This document shows, one piece after another, positions 2,564 to 13,906 of a stretch of DNA of 64,000 bases (within the stretch, counting starts at the first letter, position 1; every line of letters starts with the position of its first letter). The notes beneath the pieces were generated by a model. It was not told the origin of the DNA and made no database searches. It saw only the letters and a program-made list of their open reading frames with translations. Where the stretch lies: assembly GCA_005883355.1 (NCBI GenBank), contig VAXG01000035.1:1-64000 (forward strand), read 5' to 3'. This stretch comes from Actinomycetota bacterium (GTDB lineage: Bacteria; Actinomycetota; Thermoleophilia; Gaiellales; Gaiellaceae). Position numbers and translations under genes: made by a program.

Positions 2564-4162
2564 CTAGTGCTTTGCAACGAAGAAGTCGCTCTGCCCGATC
2601 AGGGGCCCGTACTTGTGAGCCGTGCGCTTGCCGATACCGGGATAGACGTACCAGCGGTAGTGACCCAGCGCGAGTTTGCGCGTCTTGCCCTTGTACTTCC
2701 ACTCCTTCTTCATCCGGTAGCGCGGTTGCAGCGGCCACACGCTCATGACCTTGCGCCCGCTCACGCCGAGCGACGCAACACGCCGTAGCGCCTTTCCGAC
2801 CCCGTAGTAGACCTGCAGGTTGTAGTAGGAGGCTCCCGCTACCGGCCGCCAGGCCAAGAGGGGGAGACTCGTGACGATTGACCCGCGCGCCGGTGAGTAG
2901 AGCTTGGCACCCGGCACGATGCTGACGGTCTCCGAGGCCTTGTTCCCGGCCTCGTCGTAGCCGTTGATCGTGTAGACGTACTTGACCTTGTTCGTCAGGC
3001 CCGTGTCCTCGAAGCTCGAGGCGAGGCCTTTGAAGACGGTCGACGGATCCGGGCCGGCCGTGCCCGGCGTTCGGTCGATCTCGATCGCCTTGGTGTCCGG
3101 CGACGCCGTCCAGGTCAACGTGGCGGTGCCGTCATCCCAGTCGAAGCCGAGGTTGGTGATCGTGGGCGGCGTGGCGTCGTACTTGAACGCCGGCGACGTG
3201 CCGCCGGCTCGGTTGCCCGCCTTGTCCGTGCAGGTCCCGTTGACGGTCGTACTGTTGGTGTCCGGGCCGGGATACGTGACGTCGGTGCACGCATCGATGC
3301 CGGAGCCATCGTCGCTGCCGTGGAACGTGACCCGAACCGGGTGGTTGTACCAGCCGTTGCTGTCCGGTGGACGATCGAAGGTGATGCTGTCGATGGAGGG
3401 CGCACCCGAGTCGTAGTTCACTCCGACGCCGGCACCGCCGACGTTGCCGGCTCTGTCGGTGCAGCTGGCACTGACCGCGCTGCCGCCGCCGAAGCTTCCG
3501 GAATTACAGGATGCGATCCCTGACAGGTTGTCGCTCCCACTCGCCGTAAAGTCGACAGGATGGTTGTACCAACTGCCCGAGTCAGGGCCCCGTGACAAGG
3601 CGATGGCCACGGACGGCGGCGTTGCGTCGTACTGAATTGGCCCGAAGCTGGCCGGCGCACTCACGTTTCCGGCGTTGTCCGAGCACGTCCCTGAGAACGA
3701 GGCGCTCGCGGTGTCCGGGCCACCATAGGTGGTGGAGTTGCAACCGGCGAGACCCGATGTAGCGTCGGAGCCGTTGAAGTTGATGTCAACCGGGTGGTTG
3801 TACCAGCCGTTCGAATCGGGACCGCGGCTAGGAGAGCCGCCTGTGACCGTCGGTGGCGTAGCGTCCTTCTTGATCGTCACTCCGAGCTGTGACTGTGAGC
3901 CGTTCGAGTAGGTGACCACGCACGTCCTCGACCAATTCGCCGTGTCACTTGTCACCGTGTTGGTATCGCAGGCTTGCGTATTGGTGACGCCGGTGGGATC
4001 CCACGCAAACGCAACCGTGACGCTCGTCTTGTACCAGTCAGGCGAGCAGCCACCTCCGTTGCACGTCACTGAGACTGGCGCGGCTCCTGCCGCAGGAACG
4101 AGGATCAGGAGCGGCAAGCAAACGAGGAACAACGCAAGTGGATAACGCCAGCCCACGCTCAT
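2564..4162 (-). CDS. Secreted protein with repeated Ig-like units and a fibronectin-like domain
   Basis: 532 residues. An N-terminal signal peptide (hydrophobic LALFLVCLPLLILVPAAGAAP, positions about 9-29) exports it. Then come a divergent first unit (31-100) and three clear repeats of 70-80 residues (about 101-180, 180-250, 251-329). Each has a GPDSxxWYNHPV segment, a GSDxxSG segment, a pair of cysteines and a DxAGN motif, the pattern of bacterial Ig-like surface modules. Residues about 330-425 look like a fibronectin type III domain (LTWTASPD, YTINGYDEAGN). A basic, Tyr/Trp-rich module of about 110 residues ends the protein, with no membrane anchor. The stop lies 2 bp from the convergent mannosidase stop. 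Probable role in the envelope or in glycan binding; not otherwise recognised. Confidence 0.8.
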   Translation of the reverse strand: MSVGWRYPLALFLVCLPLLILVPAAGAAPVSVTCNGGGCSPDWYKTSVTVAFAWDPTGVTNTQACDTNTVTSDTANWSRTCVVTYSNGSQSQLGVTIKKDATPPTVTGGSPSRGPDSNGWYNHPVDINFNGSDATSGLAGCNSTTYGGPDTASASFSGTCSDNAGNVSAPASFGPIQYDATPPSVAIALSRGPDSGSWYNHPVDFTASGSDNLSGIASCNSGSFGGGSAVSASCTDRAGNVGGAGVGVNYDSGAPSIDSITFDRPPDSNGWYNHPVRVTFHGSDDGSGIDACTDVTYPGPDTNSTTVNGTCTDKAGNRAGGTSPAFKYDATPPTITNLGFDWDDGTATLTWTASPDTKAIEIDRTPGTAGPDPSTVFKGLASSFEDTGLTNKVKYVYTINGYDEAGNKASETVSIVPGAKLYSPARGSIVTSLPLLAWRPVAGASYYNLQVYYGVGKALRRVASLGVSGRKVMSVWPLQPRYRMKKEWKYKGKTRKLALGHYRWYVYPGIGKRTAHKYGPLIGQSDFFVAKH

Positions 4163-4982: not shown

Positions 4983-6311
4983 TTACTCAGGGGTGCGCCG
5001 CTCGAGCGCAGGCAACGCCGGCGTCCCCGTGATCACCGAGCCGATGCCGGGAAGGTACGTCTCCATGGCCATCCCGTTCGAACGGACCAGCTTCTTGAGG
5101 AGCTCGGCGTCGAGCCCATCTCCGTAGCTGTGCAGCACTGTCTTGTAGCGAATCTCGCCGTCCTCGAGATCGAGCTCGAAGTTGCCCGCCGCGAGTCCAT
5201 AGTTCGCACCGGTGAGGAACTGCGAAACCTCGCGGCGGCGCTCCGCGGGCACATGAAGTGGACAGACGGAGTACAGGAGGATCAAGTCCTGCTCGTCGAC
5301 TACTTGGGCATAGAACTTCCAGGTCCCGAGAGGCCCGGACAGATCGCTGACCAGAACCTGCGCCCCGCGCACCTCCGAGAATGGCCAGCCGTTCTCGACG
5401 AAGACTCGCTTGAGCTCTCCGAGAAGGGCCATCTCTTCCGCTGCGTCGGCTCCGTCGGCGTGCTCGGCAGACTCCGTCACACGAGCGCGTTGCAGTAACA
5501 GATTGTCGCGCAGCGCCTCCATCGTCTCCCACACGCCTGGGGGAAGGGTGCGAGGCCGGCGCCGCGCTCGTGCCCAGAGCCCCGCGCCACAGCGGCTGCA
5601 CTTGCGGATCGACGCGCGCGGGCTTGGCCAGAGCCTTGGCTCGAAAGCGTCGATCGAACCCTCGTTGCCGCAGACGGGACATTGCAGCCCGGTCTCACCG
5701 CCCTCGGCGACGGCGGCCGGCTCCGATCCCCACGCGATGTCGGCCGAGACCAGTGAGACGTCGACCTCATCGCCGGGCAAGATCCTCCCGTCGGCAGCCA
5801 ACCGTCCGATCAGGCCCGCAGTGCTCGCGAGCCGACGGACGTACTCGGTATCCGCGGCGCGTCGCTGCAACAGCCAGAGGAGCAGCACCTGCACCGACAC
5901 AGCTTGGTCGCGGGTCCGCTCGTCAGACGTCGCCGCGCCTTTGAGCTTGACGCTCGAGAAGATCCGTGGTCCCGCACGCGCATTCAGGAACCGTGCGAGA
6001 ACGCGAAAGGAAGTGCCGCCCTGGAACGAGCGATCCGCGTGCACGACTCGGATCCAGAGCCCCCCCACCGCCTCCAAACCCGGGCTCTCGACCAGGTCTT
6101 CCAGGTGCTCGCTCGACGCTTCTTCGAGACTGCTCAGAGCGTGAGCGAGGGGAAGCGCGTGCTCCGGGCCGAGCAACGCCATCGTCCTGGCCGCGTAGTG
6201 CCCGAAACAGACGAGCTCAGCTTGCTTGCCCACCTCGCCTGCAGCGTTTGAACCGAGGATGACGCAAGCCTCGTCGGCAGAGAGGCGGATGTCGAATGTC
6301 GTCTCAACCAT
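4983..6311 (-). CDS. Zinc-ribbon protein with C-terminal YbjN-like domain
   Basis: 442 residues, no signal peptide and no membrane segment, so cytoplasmic. The N-terminal half (about 1-210) is not recognised. A zinc-ribbon-like cluster follows, CPVCG then CSRCG about 30 residues later (about 214-245). The C-terminal 150 residues (from WPFSEVRGAQVLVSDLSG to MAMETYLPGIGSVITG) resemble the YbjN/secretion-chaperone-like fold of small sensory or chaperone proteins. The YbjN assignment is family-level inference. The gene stands alone between an exported-protein gene and a strong hairpin (6368-6405), so operon context does not help. Start ATG at 6311. Confidence 0.5.
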   Translation of the reverse strand: MVETTFDIRLSADEACVILGSNAAGEVGKQAELVCFGHYAARTMALLGPEHALPLAHALSSLEEASSEHLEDLVESPGLEAVGGLWIRVVHADRSFQGGTSFRVLARFLNARAGPRIFSSVKLKGAATSDERTRDQAVSVQVLLLWLLQRRAADTEYVRRLASTAGLIGRLAADGRILPGDEVDVSLVSADIAWGSEPAAVAEGGETGLQCPVCGNEGSIDAFEPRLWPSPRASIRKCSRCGAGLWARARRRPRTLPPGVWETMEALRDNLLLQRARVTESAEHADGADAAEEMALLGELKRVFVENGWPFSEVRGAQVLVSDLSGPLGTWKFYAQVVDEQDLILLYSVCPLHVPAERRREVSQFLTGANYGLAAGNFELDLEDGEIRYKTVLHSYGDGLDAELLKKLVRSNGMAMETYLPGIGSVITGTPALPALERRTPE

Positions 6312-6445: not shown

Positions 6446-8782
6446 CTACTCGGCTCTGGCTTTTCCCCTCTTCTCCTTTCCGAGAGACAGGGTGAACGGG
6501 AGGTCCACGTTGACCAGGTTCTGCTTGGCCTTCGCGTTCCCGCGTCCGTCCTGCTTCGTCTTCGACTTCTGCACCAGGGTCTGCTCCTGGCCCTTGCCGC
6601 CGCAACCGCCACCGCAGCTGGTGTCGGCCAGCTTCTGGTCCACGGTCACGTCCTGGTCGGTGTCGTTCTTGTTCGTTGCGTCGGCGTCGGCGTTGTTTCG
6701 TGCCTTCTGCTTGGCCGAGCTCGCGCCCGAACCGCTCAGGTGGTCACCGATGACCGACAGCGGTGTGTTTGCGTTGACGGCGTCCTGCTTGGCCTTGGCG
6801 TCAGCGTCGGCGTCCTGCTTGGTCTCGCCGATCTGGATGACGTTCTGCTCCTGGCCGTTGCCGCCACAGCCCGACCAGCATTTGCTGCCGCCGCCGGACT
6901 GCGTGGCGGTCGCGTCCTGATCGGTTCTGCTGCGGTTGGACGCATCGGCGTCCGCCTTGTTGCTGACGTCCTGCGAGGCCGAGCTCGAACCGAGGCTCGG
7001 ATCGCCGCCGACCACCAACAGCGGGACGTTCGCGTTCACGGCGTTCTGCTTGGCCTTCGCGTCCGCGTCGGCGTCCTGCTTCGTCTTGCCGATCTGGATG
7101 ACGTTCTGCTCTTGGCCGTTGCCGCCACAACCCGACCAGCACGTGCTGTCGCCGGCGACCTGCGTCGCCGTAGCGCCCTGATCGGTGTTGCTCTTGTTGG
7201 ACGCGTCGGCATCTGCCTTATTGCCGGCGTCCTGCTTCGCCGAGCTCGAACCACGGCCCGGATCTCCACCGACTACGAGCAACGGAGCGTTCGTGTTCAG
7301 CGCGTCTTGCTTGGCGCCTGCGTCCGCGTCGGCGTTTTGCTTTGTCTCGCCGATCTGGACGACGTTCTGCTCTTGGCCGTTGCCGCCACAACCCGACCAG
7401 CACTGGCTCTTGCCGGCCGTCTGGGTCGCGTTGGCACTCTGATCGGTCGAGCTCCTGTTCGAAGCATCAGCGTCGGCGCTGTTGTACGCCTTCTGATCGG
7501 CCGAGCTCGAACCGCCGTTCACGTCGCCTCCGGCAAGGCTGACGGGAACGTTGGCGTTGACGGCGTTCTGCTTAGCCAGGGCATTCGCGTCCGCGGACTG
7601 CTTCGTCTGCGCGTCCTGGATCACGTTCTGCTCTTGGCCGTTGCCACCACAGCCGGACGCGCACCTGCTGGTGCCGCCGGTCTGAGTCGCGTTCGCCGTC
7701 TGGTCGGTGTTGCTCTTGTTCGAAGCATCCGCATCGGCCTTGTTCGTAGCCGTCTGGTTTGCGGAGCTGATACCACCGTTCACGTCGCCTCCGGCGATGC
7801 TGACGGGAACGTTTGCGTTCACTACGTTCTGCTTGGCCATGGCATCCGCGTCCGCGGACTGCTTCGTCTGCGCGTCCTGGATCACGTTCTGCTCTTGGCC
7901 GTTGCCACCGCAACCGGACGTGCAGCTAGAGCTGCCGCCCGTCTGCTTGGCAGTTGCGTTTTGATCGGTGCTGCTCTTGTTGTTTGCGGAGGCGTCGGCG
8001 GTGTTGCCGGCCGTCTGATTGGCCGAACTCGTACCGCCGGACACGTTCCCGCCCGCGATGCTGACAGGAACGTTGGCGTTGACCGCATTCTGCTGGGCCT
8101 GCGCTTCGGCGTCGGCGTCCTGCTTCGTGAGCGCGGACTGGTCGACGGTCTGCGATTGGCCTGCACCGCCACACCCGGACGTGCAGCTCGCGCTGCCTCC
8201 GGTCTGCGTCGCGGTGGCGGACTGATCGGTCGTGCTCTTGTTCGACGCATCAGCGTCGGCCTTGTTCGTGGCCGTCTGATCCGCCGAGCTCGAGCCGCCT
8301 GACACGTTCCCACCCGCGATGCTCACGGGGACATTGGCATTGACCGCGTTCTGCTGGGCCGCGGCTTCGGCGTCGGCGTCCTGCTGCGTCAGTGCCGACT
8401 GGTCGATCGCCTGGGCCTGGCCGGCGCCGCCACAGCCGGACAAGCAGCTGGAGCTGCCGCCCGTCTGAGTCGCGTTCGCCGTCTGATCGGTCGAGCTCGT
8501 GTTCGACGCATCAGCATTGGCCGCGTTGGTGGCCGTCTGCGTCGCCGAACCGGAGCCCGAGCCGACCGCGACGCCGCTGACGCCGCTGATGCCGACCGGC
8601 AGACTTGCGTTCGAGGCCGTTTGTCCCGCCGTGCCCGCCGCGGGCGCACCCTGAGTCGCCCCGGCCAACTGGCCGAGGAGCTGGTCTGCGCCCGGAGGCG
8701 GATCGTTGGCGGCGGTTGCCGTGCCAACCCCCACTGCGAGGGCGATCGTTGCGACGCCCAGCGCGATGAGATGGCGTTTCAT
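6446..8782 (-). CDS. Secreted curlin-like repeat protein (putative amyloid subunit)
   Basis: 778 residues with a signal peptide (MKRHLIALGVATIALAVGVG...ATAA) and then tandem units of about 87 residues (261 nt). Eight units contain a C-x-x-G-C-G-G motif (for example SCTSGCGGAGQSQTVDQ, QCWSGCGGNGQEQNVVQ). Each continues with a Q/D/A-rich segment (TKQDADAEAQAQQNAVNAN), a short hydrophobic strand (VPVSIAGG), a Gly/Ser turn (GGSSSADQ) and a segment of T/N/Q residues (TDQSATATQTGG). Evenly spaced Q and N with alternating small residues resembles curlin and other beta-solenoid amyloid subunits. No membrane anchor or sortase signal is seen; the C-terminus is basic (KEKRGKARAE). Strong ribosome site (AGAGGAGAAAG) before the ATG. 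Probably a soluble exported subunit of a surface fibre or matrix; the amyloid role is inference from composition. Confidence 0.7.
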   Translation of the reverse strand: MKRHLIALGVATIALAVGVGTATAANDPPPGADQLLGQLAGATQGAPAAGTAGQTASNASLPVGISGVSGVAVGSGSGSATQTATNAANADASNTSSTDQTANATQTGGSSSCLSGCGGAGQAQAIDQSALTQQDADAEAAAQQNAVNANVPVSIAGGNVSGGSSSADQTATNKADADASNKSTTDQSATATQTGGSASCTSGCGGAGQSQTVDQSALTKQDADAEAQAQQNAVNANVPVSIAGGNVSGGTSSANQTAGNTADASANNKSSTDQNATAKQTGGSSSCTSGCGGNGQEQNVIQDAQTKQSADADAMAKQNVVNANVPVSIAGGDVNGGISSANQTATNKADADASNKSNTDQTANATQTGGTSRCASGCGGNGQEQNVIQDAQTKQSADANALAKQNAVNANVPVSLAGGDVNGGSSSADQKAYNSADADASNRSSTDQSANATQTAGKSQCWSGCGGNGQEQNVVQIGETKQNADADAGAKQDALNTNAPLLVVGGDPGRGSSSAKQDAGNKADADASNKSNTDQGATATQVAGDSTCWSGCGGNGQEQNVIQIGKTKQDADADAKAKQNAVNANVPLLVVGGDPSLGSSSASQDVSNKADADASNRSRTDQDATATQSGGGSKCWSGCGGNGQEQNVIQIGETKQDADADAKAKQDAVNANTPLSVIGDHLSGSGASSAKQKARNNADADATNKNDTDQDVTVDQKLADTSCGGGCGGKGQEQTLVQKSKTKQDGRGNAKAKQNLVNVDLPFTLSLGKEKRGKARAE

Positions 8783-8888
8783 GGCTTTGCTTTCTCCTCT
8801 GTCGTCGTTACGTCGGATTACCGGGGCGCACCGGAGCGCCGCGGCACGGTCGGCGACAACCCGAAAGGGTTCGCCGGAAGCCCGAGCC

Positions 8889-10679
8889 CTACCCCGGACG
8901 TTCGAGACGAGAGACGACAGCCATCAGCCGCCGGAGTGCCGATGGAAGGCGACGACGTACCCACCAAGGGGCCGTCAAAGCAAAGGCGAGCAACAGCATC
9001 GCGAAGATTCCAGGCGATCCACCCGTCGGGGACGCGCCTCCGAGCGATGCGTTGGGCATGTTCGGAGCATGCGGGAACGGCGCTCGATGACCGGGCGCGC
9101 CGGAGTGCGATCGGCCTGCCGGCGAGGTCGACGTCGCAGAGCTGGGCTGATCCGGCGCCAACCATTGGGCGGCGTCGGCCACGAAGGAAGACGCAAGGCT
9201 CCAGCCGGCAGGGCCGAAACGCCTCGTGACGACACCGGCCGGCACCAGGACGTCCGCAGACTGCGTGTAAGGCTCGTTCTGCTCGATGACCTGGGTCCCC
9301 GGTCCGGTTTGCTGCGCTACCTGAACGGTCTGGTTCGAGCTCTCCTGGGTTCCAGTTGCGCTCGAGTTGCCCGAAGTCCCGGCTTGTTCGGAGATTGCCT
9401 GCGCGCTCGCGGTCTGCGTGGTCGGGGCGCTCTGCACGATGGTCTGCGACTGGCCCGCTCCCCCCACCTGGCTCCCCCCAGCCGACCCCCCGCTCTGCGA
9501 CTGGGCGGCGAACTGGGTCACCTGGTTCGAGTTCACGGCGGAGGCGGTGGCGGACGAGGTGTTCGCCTGCGTTGCCGCGTATTGGTCCTCGAGGGGGATC
9601 CAGATCTGGATCAACATCCCGAAGGCGCCCGAGCCGGCGGGATCCGGCGCGGCGCCGTCGATCAGGACGGAGACATTCGCGTTCGTAGGCGCGCTCTGTG
9701 TCGAGATCGCCGTTGCATTGGCGTCCTGTGCCGTCGGCGCACTCTGAGTCACCGACTGCGATTGACCGCTGGATGAGCCGTCGTCCGCAAGCGCCTGTGC
9801 CTGCGTCGTGGACTGGTTTACGGCGTTGTCGTTCGCGGCCTGGGCCGTTGCCTGTGAGCTGTTCGTCTGGGTGACGGGGCCCGTGTCGCCAGGGCTCTTG
9901 TTGCGAATGACGATATTCGCGTTCAGCGGCGCCGTCTGCGTCGACGCCGGAGTTGCAGTGCTGCCCTGGGTCGTCGGGGCGGTCTGATCGGTCGACTGCG
10001 ACTGGCCACCGGAAGCACCGCCACCAGTCTGGCTCTGTGCGGCGTCCTGCGCCGTAGCGTTCGAATTGTTGCCGGCGGCGCTGGCGACCGATGTGTTGGT
10101 CTGAGTCACCGGCCCGTCATTGCCGGGACTGTCGATCCGGATGACAAGGTTCAGGTTCGTCGGCGTCACCTGGGTGGAGGCAGCTGTTGCATCACCATTC
10201 TGGGTCACAGGCGCGCTCTGACTCGACGCCTGTTTCTGGGCGGGAGCCGGGTCGGGGGGTGGAGCGCTGCCGGAATCCTGCTGCTGCGAAGCGCTCTGAT
10301 CGGTGTGGTTCGCATTGTTCTCCGACGCGACCGCAGCGGAATCGTTTCGTTGGCTTGCGCTACCCCCGGCGGAGAGGTTTGTCGCATTCTGGGTCGACGT
10401 CGCGGAGGCCCTCGCGCTCTGCTGCACCGGCGCGTTCTGGGCGATCGTCTGCGACTGCGCCCCGCCGCCATCGCCGCCGCTCTGCGTAACCGTCGCGCTC
10501 TGGGTAGTGCTGTTGTCGTTTTGCGCCGACGACGACGCGCTGGAGGAGCTCGTCTGCTCGGCGCTGCTACCCGGGTCGGTCGAATCCGCAGCCGCCTTGC
10601 TCGGCGCGAAGGCTGCGCAGCTCGCGAACAAGACGGTGAATACCAGTAGTGCGAGGCAGCGCCTCGGCCCCTCCCCCAT
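8889..10679 (-). CDS. Membrane-anchored Q/N/T-rich repeat protein, paralogue of 6446-8782
   Basis: 596 residues with a signal peptide (LALLVFTVLFASCAAFAPSKAAA). About five repeats of 85-100 residues follow, built on GGxSQTxxQSAPTTQ, ANATAxSTQSAPTNANVxVxI and PVTQTNxSxATA segments. The order of motifs matches the repeats of the neighbouring gene, so the two are paralogous. Unlike the neighbour it lacks the CxxGC motif. It ends in a non-repetitive region, one membrane helix (GIFAMLLLAFALTAPWW) and a basic tail (RRRLPSALRR...), so it should be tethered to the membrane. It is upstream of 6446-8782 on the same strand, 106 bp apart, and divergent from the LuxR gene at 10822. Candidate anchor or nucleator for the putative fibre (inference). 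Confidence 0.65.
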   Translation of the reverse strand: MGEGPRRCLALLVFTVLFASCAAFAPSKAAADSTDPGSSAEQTSSSSASSSAQNDNSTTQSATVTQSGGDGGGAQSQTIAQNAPVQQSARASATSTQNATNLSAGGSASQRNDSAAVASENNANHTDQSASQQQDSGSAPPPDPAPAQKQASSQSAPVTQNGDATAASTQVTPTNLNLVIRIDSPGNDGPVTQTNTSVASAAGNNSNATAQDAAQSQTGGGASGGQSQSTDQTAPTTQGSTATPASTQTAPLNANIVIRNKSPGDTGPVTQTNSSQATAQAANDNAVNQSTTQAQALADDGSSSGQSQSVTQSAPTAQDANATAISTQSAPTNANVSVLIDGAAPDPAGSGAFGMLIQIWIPLEDQYAATQANTSSATASAVNSNQVTQFAAQSQSGGSAGGSQVGGAGQSQTIVQSAPTTQTASAQAISEQAGTSGNSSATGTQESSNQTVQVAQQTGPGTQVIEQNEPYTQSADVLVPAGVVTRRFGPAGWSLASSFVADAAQWLAPDQPSSATSTSPAGRSHSGAPGHRAPFPHAPNMPNASLGGASPTGGSPGIFAMLLLAFALTAPWWVRRRLPSALRRLMAVVSRLERPG

Positions 10680-10821
10680 GAGCTCAACGATCGCCGACCT
10701 GCTCTCGTCGGAACAGACCCCGGCTTACGGGTTCGACTCCCTCCAACTGGGCGGACTGACGCGTCCGTCAAGCCCGACCCAAGGCCGGTCTTGGCGAAAG
10801 ACGGACTACGATGAACGCTAG

Positions 10822-11592
10822 GTGCCGACGCACATTCTGGTCGTCGAGGGTCACCGGCTCGTGCGACAGGGAATCCGGTCCGAGCTGTCGGACACTGACG
10901 GGGTCGTCGTCACCGAAGCAGCCAGCGGCGCAGCTGCGATCGCCGCCGCCGCCGAGCAGCGGCCCGACGTCGTGGTGCTCGCCTCCGAGCTTGTCGACCG
11001 CCCAGGCACAGATGTCTGCGCAGCCATCATCGAGCAGCATCCTGCCGCCGCGATCATCTTCCTCTCGGAGCACAGTGACGAGGCCTCGGTCCGCGCTGCA
11101 CTCGATGCGGGCGCTCGTGCGTACTTGCTCCCAGACTCGGACGACCTCGATCTGCCTCGCGCGATCGAACGGGCACTCGCAGGTGAGAGCGTGATCGATC
11201 CACGTGCGGCGGCTGCCCTGCTCTCGTCTCGCGGCGGTGCACAGCAACCGAAGCTCACGAGCCAGGAGCTCAAAGTCCTCCGACTCGTCGCCGAGGGCCT
11301 CACGAATCCAGAGATCGGAGCAAGCCTCTACCTGAGCCGGCATACCGTGAAGGAGTACGTCAGCCATGCGATGCACAAGCTCGAGGCGACGAATCGCATC
11401 GAAGCAGTGCGCAAGGCAACAGCTCTCGGTCTGATCGAAGGAGTCGGACCGCCTTCCGGTGAAACGACACGGTCGCGGCGAGACACGCTCGTCTACAACG
11501 AGTCGGTAGGGCCGGCGCGTAACACGGATCTCAAGGTCACTCCGATCAAGATCGACAAGCTCGTCGCGAGCCCGGACCCGTCTGCGGAGTAG
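10822..11592 (+). CDS. LuxR/NarL-type regulator with degenerate receiver domain
   Basis: 256 residues. Residues 1-120 have the receiver fold (ILVVEGHRLVRQGI, then ARAYLLPDSDD). The acidic pair is VEG instead of VDD, the phosphoacceptor site reads VVVLASELVDRPG with Ala where Asp is expected, and the Lys of the usual LLK is Pro. So it should not be controlled by Asp phosphorylation. Residues about 140-205 form a clear LuxR helix-turn-helix (LTSQELKVLRLVAEGLTNPEIG, LSRHTVKEYVSHAMHKL). About 45 extra residues follow the HTH. GTG start at 10822 gives PTHILVV directly. It is divergent from the repeat-protein operon with a 142-bp gap holding CCAAG-N6-CTTGG and GACGCGTC palindromes. In enterobacteria CsgD is also a LuxR protein with an atypical receiver controlling curli; the analogy is inference. 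Confidence 0.8.
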   Translation: MPTHILVVEGHRLVRQGIRSELSDTDGVVVTEAASGAAAIAAAAEQRPDVVVLASELVDRPGTDVCAAIIEQHPAAAIIFLSEHSDEASVRAALDAGARAYLLPDSDDLDLPRAIERALAGESVIDPRAAAALLSSRGGAQQPKLTSQELKVLRLVAEGLTNPEIGASLYLSRHTVKEYVSHAMHKLEATNRIEAVRKATALGLIEGVGPPSGETTRSRRDTLVYNESVGPARNTDLKVTPIKIDKLVASPDPSAE

Positions 11593-11604: not shown

Positions 11605-13008
11605 TTACTCGCGGTACCGGATTCCGTCTGGACTTTTCCTACCGAGACCGTGATCGGACAAGCCTTTGCTGCCTAGTCGCGCTCGAAGCGAGCGAGCGGC
11701 GATCGCTGCCGTCAGGAGGAGCAAGCCCAGGCCGAAGGCGAATGACAACGGGAGAACCAGGAGCAGCCAGCCTCCGAAGAGATTGACGGCTGATGAGGCA
11801 GGCTCGAGGATCCGCGGCGGCGGCGGCGCGGCCTCGACCTCGCTCCGGGGGACAGTGGTCTTCGGCTTCGGGCTCAGGACCCGCACCGGCCGAGGGCGCG
11901 CCGGAAGGCTCTGCGACTCCGGCCGGACTTGCGCCGGAATTACCCGCTGGGTCCGCGTCGCCTCGCCCGACCTCGCCACCCTGGGGCGACTCGGCCTGTC
12001 GACGGGGCGGCTCGCCGCGACCTTCGTTACAGCCGGCTGCGGATTGTCCGGAACCGGAAGTGCGTCCGCACCGGACTGCGCGGGCGCCGCTGTCGGCGGA
12101 ACCGGAGCAGTCACGGGCTCGGTTGTCGGCGAAACGATGCTCGGCGGTGACGGGGTATCCGCGCTCCCGGAAGTGCTCGGGACCTGGGCCTCCGGCAGCT
12201 GGGCCTCTGGGTCCGAGATCGGTATGCCCGACTCGTCCGATCCTCCGCAGGGCGTCGAAGCCGGAGTCTGATACTGCGGCTCGTCGGGTTGATACTGCGC
12301 TCCTTCGTCTGCGCAACCGGCCGAATCCGACGGATCGTCGCTCGTCGCTTCGTCGGCCGGCGAATCCGCCACGCACTGAATGCTTGCCACGTCGTCCGCC
12401 GGCAGGTCCGAAGGCCAGTTCCGACCAGGATCCGTCGGACAGTTCTGCGCGACGTTATGCCACCGATTCGACGACGCGATTGGCGACGATGAACGCGTAA
12501 TTCTCGTCCGTTCTAAGGACGAAAAGGACGCCGTTGGCAATACCGGCGCACGCGTGCTCCTTCTGGCTGTCGCGGGCCGCTGATACTGCACGTGCCGAGA
12601 GTGATACTGCAGCTTGTCCGGCGGTGCGACGACCGCCAGATGCTGTGGTTCGTCCGTCGACGCGCGTTCTGGCGACTTCTGCGCGTACCTCGGTGATATC
12701 ACCTGACTCCAACCCTGCCGGACGCGATCCAGTTGCGCAGTCGCCGGCGCAGAGGGAGGCGTATTTCCAGGGCTTTCCTGCTCCAAGGGAGAAATTCCCG
12801 CATCGGCTGCGAACGAGAGCGCCAGTTCCATTTCGTCCGACGCCCCGGACGCGAGTGCAGGTGCAGCGGCGGGCGGTACGGGTGGCGGCGGATCGTCTGT
12901 TGCGTGTGCCGGCGTTGCGAACGTCAGCGCAGCAAGGCCGACGAAGTGAACCGCACCGAGTCTCACGAGTCTGGTTCGGATGAGCGGCATCCCGTGAACT
13001 CCACGCAC
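11605..13008 (-). CDS. Pro/Ser-rich exported protein with C-terminal membrane anchor
   Basis: 467 residues; ATG at 13008, with an alternative Met at residue 7 (12990). A signal peptide (LGAVHFVGLAALTFATPAHA) is followed by about 370 residues of low-complexity Pro/Ser/Ala/Gln sequence. It contains several QYQ or QYH triplets (LQYHSRHVQYQ, AQYQPDEPQYQ) and three isolated cysteines. One membrane helix near the end (WLLLVLPLSFAFGLGLLLL) is followed by a basic cytoplasmic tail. The layout matches 4164-4892 and the anchor of 8889-10679. Convergent with the LuxR gene (12 bp apart). It may belong to the same surface system, but no domain is recognised. Confidence 0.6.
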   Translation of the reverse strand: MRGVHGMPLIRTRLVRLGAVHFVGLAALTFATPAHATDDPPPPVPPAAAPALASGASDEMELALSFAADAGISPLEQESPGNTPPSAPATAQLDRVRQGWSQVISPRYAQKSPERASTDEPQHLAVVAPPDKLQYHSRHVQYQRPATARRSTRAPVLPTASFSSLERTRITRSSSPIASSNRWHNVAQNCPTDPGRNWPSDLPADDVASIQCVADSPADEATSDDPSDSAGCADEGAQYQPDEPQYQTPASTPCGGSDESGIPISDPEAQLPEAQVPSTSGSADTPSPPSIVSPTTEPVTAPVPPTAAPAQSGADALPVPDNPQPAVTKVAASRPVDRPSRPRVARSGEATRTQRVIPAQVRPESQSLPARPRPVRVLSPKPKTTVPRSEVEAAPPPPRILEPASSAVNLFGGWLLLVLPLSFAFGLGLLLLTAAIAARSLRARLGSKGLSDHGLGRKSPDGIRYRE

Positions 13009-13108
13009 CTTCGAGTTGATGAACGTCCTAGAGAAGAACTACCCCAGAACAGCTCCAACTACCCATGACTTTGTAAATCCGAAAGAAAATCTCTAAAGTA
13101 AATTCAGC

Positions 13109-13906
13109 ATGATCGCGAACTCCGCGAGTAGGCGTGACATCGAGTCACGAGAGCGGCTGATCGAACAACAGCTTCCACTCGTCGAGTCGCTCGCACGGCG
13201 TTACGCACACCGCGGAGAGCCGATGGAGGATCTCGTTCAGGTCGGGACTATCGGCCTGATCAACGCAGTCGACCGATACGAGCCGGAGCGGGGCGTCGCG
13301 CTCAGCGCGTTCGCCGTGCCGAACATCCTCGGTGAGATCAAGCGTCATCTTCGCGATCGTTGCGGCCCGATCCGGGTACCGCGCCGCTACCAGGAGACGA
13401 GCGCGCGAATGCGCAGCACGCGATGGCAGCTGGCGGCACGCCTCCAGCGCAATCCCACCGCTGCAGAGCTCGCCGCAGCGGCGAACCTCAACGAGGGCGA
13501 GCTCGACGAGGCCATGCGCGCGGAGCAGGCCCGAACGCCCCTCTCGCTGACGGAGGCGGACCCGGCGGTGAGCGCTGGCGAGATTTTCGACGCCAGCGAG
13601 GACCGCCTGCTCATCTGGCGTGGCCTGCGTTCCTTGCACCGGCGGGAGCGATTGGTACTGGGTTTTCGGTACTTCGAGGACCTCAGTCAGGAGGAGATCG
13701 CGGCCCGGCTGGGCATTTCGCAAACGCAGACGTCGAGGCTGATCGCCTCGGGCCTGGCCAAGCTTCGGGCCGATTTCGACGGGAAGTCGCGTTGTGCAGC
13801 CCGGCAGGAGGCCCTACACTCGTGGCATGGCGACTCCGCGAGCCGTCGAGGAAGCACCGCCGCAGGAGACCGCGGCAAAGCCGCGCTCGCGCCCGGCGAG
13901 GCATAG
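13109..13906 (+). CDS. Sigma-70 family factor, SigB/SigF-like
   Basis: 265 residues; the sigma-factor core ends near residue 230. Region 2 (QLPLVESLARRYAHRGEPMEDLVQ.. and GLINAVDRYEPERGVALSAFA), region 3 (RNPTAAELAAAANLNEGELDEA) and region 4.2 (LSQEEIAARLGISQTQTSRLI) are all visible, in the order of group 3 SigB/F/G factors that direct stress or development genes in Gram-positives. No anti-sigma factor gene is adjacent. The last 35 residues (SRCAARQEALHSWHGD...) fall outside the sigma fold and overlap the start of the next gene by 80 bp, so the stop may have drifted. The 100 bp upstream are unusually A+T-rich (around 13070-13108) and probably hold the promoter. Confidence 0.85.
   Translation: MIANSASRRDIESRERLIEQQLPLVESLARRYAHRGEPMEDLVQVGTIGLINAVDRYEPERGVALSAFAVPNILGEIKRHLRDRCGPIRVPRRYQETSARMRSTRWQLAARLQRNPTAAELAAAANLNEGELDEAMRAEQARTPLSLTEADPAVSAGEIFDASEDRLLIWRGLRSLHRRERLVLGFRYFEDLSQEEIAARLGISQTQTSRLIASGLAKLRADFDGKSRCAARQEALHSWHGDSASRRGSTAAGDRGKAALAPGEA

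What the first reader, a model, noticed from the sequence alone, without database searches (positions are those of the whole stretch)
6446..11592. Putative curli-like functional-amyloid locus in an actinobacterium
Two exported proteins built from tandem Q/N/S/T-rich units of 85-100 residues (one with an eightfold CxxGC motif, one with a membrane anchor and basic tail) lie next to each other, divergent from a LuxR regulator with a degenerate receiver. The layout recalls the enterobacterial pair CsgA (soluble subunit) and CsgB (nucleator) with CsgD. No secretion pore like CsgG is present, as expected for a Gram-positive envelope. Seen: repeats, anchors, orientation. Inferred: amyloid nature, anchor or nucleator role and control by the LuxR protein.
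Basis: partly seen in the sequence, partly recalled or inferred. Interest (0 to 1): 0.78.

Follow-up and report, generated by a model that had tools for sequence, protein, structure and literature searches.

The report
Amyloid-like fibre locus with own sigma
A soil actinobacterium carries an undescribed family of exported repeat proteins whose sequence pattern predicts stacked beta-strands like those of bacterial amyloids such as curli, in a soluble-plus-anchored pair with a dedicated regulator; they are not detectably related to curli, and fibre formation has not been tested.

Summary
R1 (6446-8782, -, 778 aa) has 87-residue units with eight CxxGC motifs; R2 (8889-10679, -, 596 aa) has related units, a C-terminal membrane segment and a basic tail; a LuxR-type regulator diverges from them. 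R1 and R2 are homologous repeats (hhalign probability 98.4%) absent from Pfam and NCBIfam. In R1 units every second residue over two ~30-residue stretches is a conserved Q/N/A/S/T; charge is 0/186 at these positions against 71/174 between them. AlphaFold2, at low confidence (pLDDT 49), makes these stretches ~29-residue beta-strands; the best Foldseek hit is the amyloid FapC, at TM 0.1 and so only suggestive. Curlin membership fails (no PF07012 over cut-off in 349 class genomes; no CsgG here). Co-occurrence is strong: sigma, LuxR, R2 and R1 keep their order in the genus. The wider, two-family module is a SigB/F/G-type sigma factor, a repeat protein (with an anchored partner in several loci) and an Ig-like protein; linked sigma factors mostly group apart from the housekeeping copy (support 85/72). 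Best reading: a curli-like, non-homologous, surface-anchored fibre system. Amyloid nature is inferred.

The parts
6446..8782 (-). R1: secreted major repeat protein, 778 aa; eight CxxGC motifs, 87-aa spacing; two ~30-residue alternating segments per unit
8889..10679 (-). R2: membrane-anchored repeat protein, 596 aa; related units, C-terminal hydrophobic segment, basic tail ending SRLERPG
10822..11592 (+). LuxR/NarL-type response regulator; phospho-acceptor position Ala here, Asp in orthologues; linked to the repeats in the genus
10714..10733 (-). dyad RACCCG-N6-GGGGTCTR between R2 and LuxR, present in 5 of 5 genus loci, once in the window; candidate operator (inferred; pattern derived from these same sequences)
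13109..13906 (+). SigB/SigF/SigG-type sigma factor, second and fast-evolving copy linked to repeat loci; candidate dedicated regulator (inferred)
11605..13008 (-). Pro-rich exported protein with C-terminal hydrophobic segment and QYQP motifs like those in the anchored proteins of G007 and G016; conserved in G003
4983..6311 (-). protein with YbjN domain and CxxC pairs, downstream of R1; conserved in G001 and G009; role unknown
2564..4162 (-). exported Ig-like repeat protein; linked to repeat genes in two families of the class

Best explanation
The locus makes a surface fibre or matrix that works like curli but is not detectably related to it. R1 is exported (shown: signal-like N terminus) and each 87-residue unit folds as two ~30-residue beta-strands joined by Gly-rich turns (a long beta-arch), with Q, N, A, S, T inside and D, K, S, T, N outside (pattern shown; fold predicted at low confidence). 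Units stack within one molecule and, by open edges, between molecules to give an amyloid-like beta-solenoid fibre (inferred). The CxxGC pair sits at one turn of each unit and could give a disulfide or metal ladder (inferred). R2 has related units plus a C-terminal membrane segment, so it is the likely cell-bound template or anchor for R1 (inferred; compare CsgB and the long chaplins). Expression is likely under the linked SigB/F/G-type sigma factor and, in this genus, the LuxR regulator (linkage shown; control inferred). The Ig-like protein is a likely co-secreted surface partner (inferred).
For: Exact unit spacing and coding frame. Alternation: entropy difference between the two parities 1.17 and 1.48 bits, no permutation of 100,000 as large (segment limits were chosen after viewing the profile); charged residues 0/186 against 71/174 in six window units, 1/744 against 284/696 in 24 units of five genomes. 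R1 and R2 profiles homologous. AlphaFold2 with 19 rows: strands 2-30, 45-73, 88-117, 132-160, 175-204, 219-247, which are the alternating segments. Foldseek: FapC 9u4u first (E 3e-4), CsgA 8c50 fourth, CsgA 8enq eighth. R2 profile against all PDB sequences to E 10: only CsgA 8enq, E 0.25. CsgA and FapC use Asn/Gln networks in imperfect repeats (PMC10192328, PMC12822426). Anchored partner beside the long repeat protein in several genera. Linked sigma factor in 14 repeat loci of two families; genus members without repeats show only the housekeeping copy.
Against: No experiment. AlphaFold2 confidence is low (pLDDT 49, pTM 0.46; 31.7 with five rows). Foldseek TM is about 0.1 and its score uses residue types, so Q/N/A/G-rich composition may drive the hits. 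The core has few large hydrophobic residues. The long-alternation count is clear for R1 but not above shuffles for R2 in this window (1 against a shuffle mean of 1.2). R2 as nucleator rests on anatomy alone. Not every repeat locus has the sigma gene (absent in the stretches fetched for G012, G067, G263 and others).
Confidence: 0.5

Rival explanations
1. R1 and R2 are beta-rich repetitive surface proteins (stalk, adhesin or wall spacer) that fold as separate solenoid molecules and do not polymerise.
For: The same alternating pattern is expected for a monomeric beta-solenoid; the Ig-like neighbour suits an adhesin set. Foldseek also returns non-amyloid solenoids (SufB/SufD, ice-binding proteins).
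Against: No capping or adhesive head domain was recognised in R1 or R2; R1 runs in repeats nearly to its end; the soluble-plus-anchored pairing recurs.
Confidence: 0.27
2. R1 is a disordered hydrophilin-like protein that protects the envelope against drying, with repeats kept for composition alone.
For: Hydrophilic, 12.7% Gly, few large hydrophobics; soil host; the linked sigma factor is of the SigB/F/G (stress or sporulation) type; the five-row structure prediction is mostly coil.
Against: Composition alone does not explain fixed positions: 0/186 charged at inward positions against 71/174 outward, fixed unit length, and position-matched units across species.
Confidence: 0.13
3. A true but very diverged curli system.
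For: One N-x-psi-x-psi-x-Q kernel in seven R1 units, above shuffles (7 against 1.5, p 0.0015); weak sole PDB sequence hit to CsgA.
Against: No PF07012 match, no CsgG, profile comparison 0.1% probability, QX10Q below chance in R1, unit 87 against about 23 residues.
Confidence: 0.03

Closest known systems
Curli (CsgA/CsgB/CsgD, CsgG export)
   Same: Exported Q/N-rich repeats, inward Asn/Gln and small residues, a major subunit with a cell-bound partner, LuxR-type regulator nearby
   Different: No curlin domain, no CsgG, unit 87 instead of about 23 residues, no QX10Q spacing, actinobacterial host; LuxR shares only the generic HTH with CsgD
FapC (Pseudomonas functional amyloid)
   Same: Longer imperfect repeats with conserved Asn/Gln; first Foldseek hit of the low-confidence model
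   Different: No FapC match in the PDB sequence searches; TM about 0.1; fap operon genes not looked for; different host
Chaplins and rodlins (Streptomyces)
   Same: Actinobacterial surface amyloids; long anchored chaplins with short soluble ones, Cys pairs (PMC7766987)
   Different: No PF03777 match over cut-off in this genome or 20 relatives (no control genome was positive, so sensitivity was not shown); chaplins are short and hydrophobic, these are long and hydrophilic
SigB/SigF/SigG sigma factors (TIGR02980)
   Same: Best NCBIfam match of 13109-13906 (214 bits, cut-off 234)
   Different: Below the curated cut-off; a separate, faster-evolving group from the housekeeping copy

Membership tests
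Curli | Curlin repeat domain PF07012 | tested here: not met
   No hit at E<=10 in R1, R2 or ten relatives; none in the own genome; 0 of 349 class genomes over cut-off, E. coli control positive
Curli | Profile similarity to CsgA/CsgB | tested here: not met
   hhalign probability 0.1% (R1) and 0.0% (R2) against a two-sequence profile
Curli | QX10Q kernel spacing, about 23-residue repeat | tested here: not met
   R1 has 2 QX10Q against 7.3 expected; unit 87 aa
Curli | CsgG secretion channel | tested here: not met
   PF03783 absent at E<=1 from a genome 95% complete; E. coli control positive
Curli | CsgD regulator | tested here: not met
   Only a 92-residue HTH-region match, 28% identity, generic for LuxR-type regulators
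Functional amyloid | Stacked cross-beta repeats | tested here: inconclusive
   AlphaFold2 gives long strands at pLDDT 49; Foldseek FapC/CsgA at TM about 0.1
Functional amyloid | Fibres binding thioflavin T or Congo red | not testable with these tools
   needs bench work
Chaplin | Chaplin domain PF03777 | tested here: not met
   No match over cut-off in 21 genomes; no positive control among the control genomes; no hit in R1 or R2
Fap system | FapC homology | tested here: inconclusive
   No FapC in PDB sequence searches; weak Foldseek hit only
Fap system | fap operon genes (FapA-F) | not tested
   not searched

The most novel reading that the evidence does not exclude
An amyloid system of one actinobacterial class, independent of curli, Fap and chaplins: fibres built from 87-residue two-strand arches several times wider than the curlin arch, edged by a Cys ladder, templated by a membrane-anchored subunit with a conserved xRPG C-terminal end, and switched on by its own sigma factor.
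Probability: 0.35. Interest if true: 0.85.

Novelty: new variant of a known kind. Interest (0 to 1): 0.62.

Why it matters
Amyloid-type reactivity has been reported for Gram-positive bacteria, and for at least one actinobacterium the protein was still unidentified when its genome was announced (PMC5968725). This locus gives a concrete, testable gene set for such a fibre in soil actinobacteria, with a strict residue pattern that makes structural predictions easy to test, and a gene pairing (repeat genes with a linked sigma factor) that can be used to find more.

Tried and rejected
Curlin membership and chaplin membership tested and not met. AlphaFold2 with five rows gave pLDDT 31.7 and was replaced by 19 rows. 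The first genome-contig scan with R1 alone found nothing; the second, with an alignment, found four named metagenome records. Virus and plasmid searches with the R2 unit found nothing. A regular-expression scan for SigF-type promoters gave no convincing site at these genes; two GGGTAGTT copies upstream of 11605-13008, one of them exact in G003, and one upstream of a repeat gene in G250 are left as a lead. Scattered Pfam hits to the repeats (EB1_binding, Agd3_C, RAP80_UIM and the like) were set aside as low-complexity matches, although two passed their cut-offs (RAP80_UIM in G030, EB1_binding in G032). An Rfam scan and a tRNA scan of the window were empty.

Full report
OBSERVATION. R1 has eight CxxGC motifs spaced 87,87,87,87,87,87,88 residues apart; the array is also seen in the DNA. 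R2 has related but looser units about 78-80 residues apart, a C-terminal hydrophobic segment and an Arg-rich tail. Differences between R1 units concentrate on third codon positions, so the minus-strand frame is the coding one despite a 520-codon antisense ORF.

REPEAT ANATOMY. Twenty-four R1 units of exactly 87 residues (window, G001, G002, G009, G032) were stacked. Columns 6-36 (even) and 49-77 (odd) are invariant or nearly so and hold mostly Q, N, A, S, T, V or P, while the columns between vary and hold D, K, S, T, N. Charged residues: 0 of 186 inward and 71 of 174 outward in the six window units of 87 residues; 1 of 744 and 284 of 696 over all 24. The columns were chosen by conservation, not charge. 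R1 and R2 align as profiles at 98.4% probability, with matching spacing of the invariant Q, A and N positions. Seven R1 units hold an N-x-psi-x-psi-x-Q kernel like that of curlin (7 against 1.5 expected), but QX10Q is below chance, 2 against 7.3 (motif definitions from PMC10192328).

STRUCTURE. With 19 rows AlphaFold2 turns the alternating segments into six strands of about 29 residues, pLDDT 49.1, pTM 0.46. This is low. Foldseek ranks FapC first and two CsgA structures within the first eight, at TM about 0.1 or less for the query, so the match is of local pattern, not of overall fold. The R2 profile against PDB sequences gives only CsgA, E 0.25, not significant.

RELATIVES. R1-type units: 15 of 349 genomes of the class; R2-type: 21 of 349 genomes, 15 of 121 genera; in a draw of 397 genomes over the phylum 3 genomes match, two of them of this class. 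The named records are metagenome genomes called Actinobacteria or Solirubrobacterales bacterium; that the class is Thermoleophilia is my inference from that name. No hits in virus contigs or plasmids with the R2 unit.

NEIGHBOURS. In G001, G002, G003 and G009 the order sigma - LuxR - R2 - R1 is kept as far as the contigs reach (G003 ends inside R2). LuxR orthologues at E<=1e-50 occur only in these four and the window among 41 genomes; G012, another genus, has a 49% relative beside its repeats. G007 of the same genus lacks LuxR and the Cys-type R1, but has sigma, an anchored repeat protein, a long repeat protein and the Ig-like gene. Counting from my own tables, a SigB/F/G-type sigma gene lies in the same fetched stretch as repeats in 14 loci: window, G001, G002, G003, G007, G009, G032, G016, G101, G133, G251 (family f1) and G237, G250, G283 (f10). 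The Ig-like gene does so in 12. Repeat loci without a sigma gene in the stretch exist (G012, G030, G067, G263, G247, G277 and second loci of others), some on short contigs.

SIGMA TREE. All ten genus genomes have at least one SigB/F/G relative; G000, G002, G007 and G009 have two, and G004, G005, G006 and G008, in which no repeats were found, have one. In the tree 12 linked sequences form one group (support 85/72) and 19 others another (88/90); the two linked f10 copies G250 and G283 branch outside both, next to a long branch. The label needs two changes against 11.1 in shuffles. This shows clustering, not strict common descent.

ANCHOR AND OPERATOR LEADS. Of 12 anchored or candidate anchored proteins inspected, eight end in RPG after the membrane segment and basic stretch, one in KPG and one in PPG. 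A dyad RACCCG-N6-GGGGTCTR lies between R2 and LuxR in all five genus loci and once in the window (10714-10733); the pattern was read off these same sequences, so this is a lead, not a test.

VERDICT. I hold a curli-like, non-homologous fibre system at 0.5, a non-polymerising beta-solenoid surface protein at 0.27, a disordered protectant at 0.13 and diverged curli at 0.03.

Noticed in passing
window 8889-8910 (R2 C terminus) and L027, L060, L089, L090: Anchored repeat proteins of several genera end at the very C terminus in xRPG (8 of 12; KPG and PPG in two more) after the membrane segment and basic stretch; a possible sorting or processing signal.
   Followed up: partly
window 13030-13070: Two GGGTAGTT copies 20 bases apart upstream of 11605-13008 on the minus strand; one exact and one near copy in G003 (L032), and one upstream of a repeat gene in G250 (L087:8822).
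   Followed up: partly
L057, L058: G250 and G283 of another family carry a second, Cys-type repeat locus separate from their sigma-linked one (L087, L088), with unit spacing from 98 down to 70 residues in G283.
   Followed up: partly
window 11605-13008: Pro-rich membrane protein shares QYQP motifs with the anchored proteins next to the sigma gene in G007 and G016.
   Followed up: no
L035:6383-8638: A Q-rich exported protein with QLQIGC-x2-C repeats and a C-terminal hydrophobic segment lies just downstream of an R1-type gene.
   Followed up: no
window 8783-8888: The R2-R1 intergenic stretch has a conserved GGCGCTCCGG-GCGCC block in four genus loci, possibly a hairpin.
   Followed up: no
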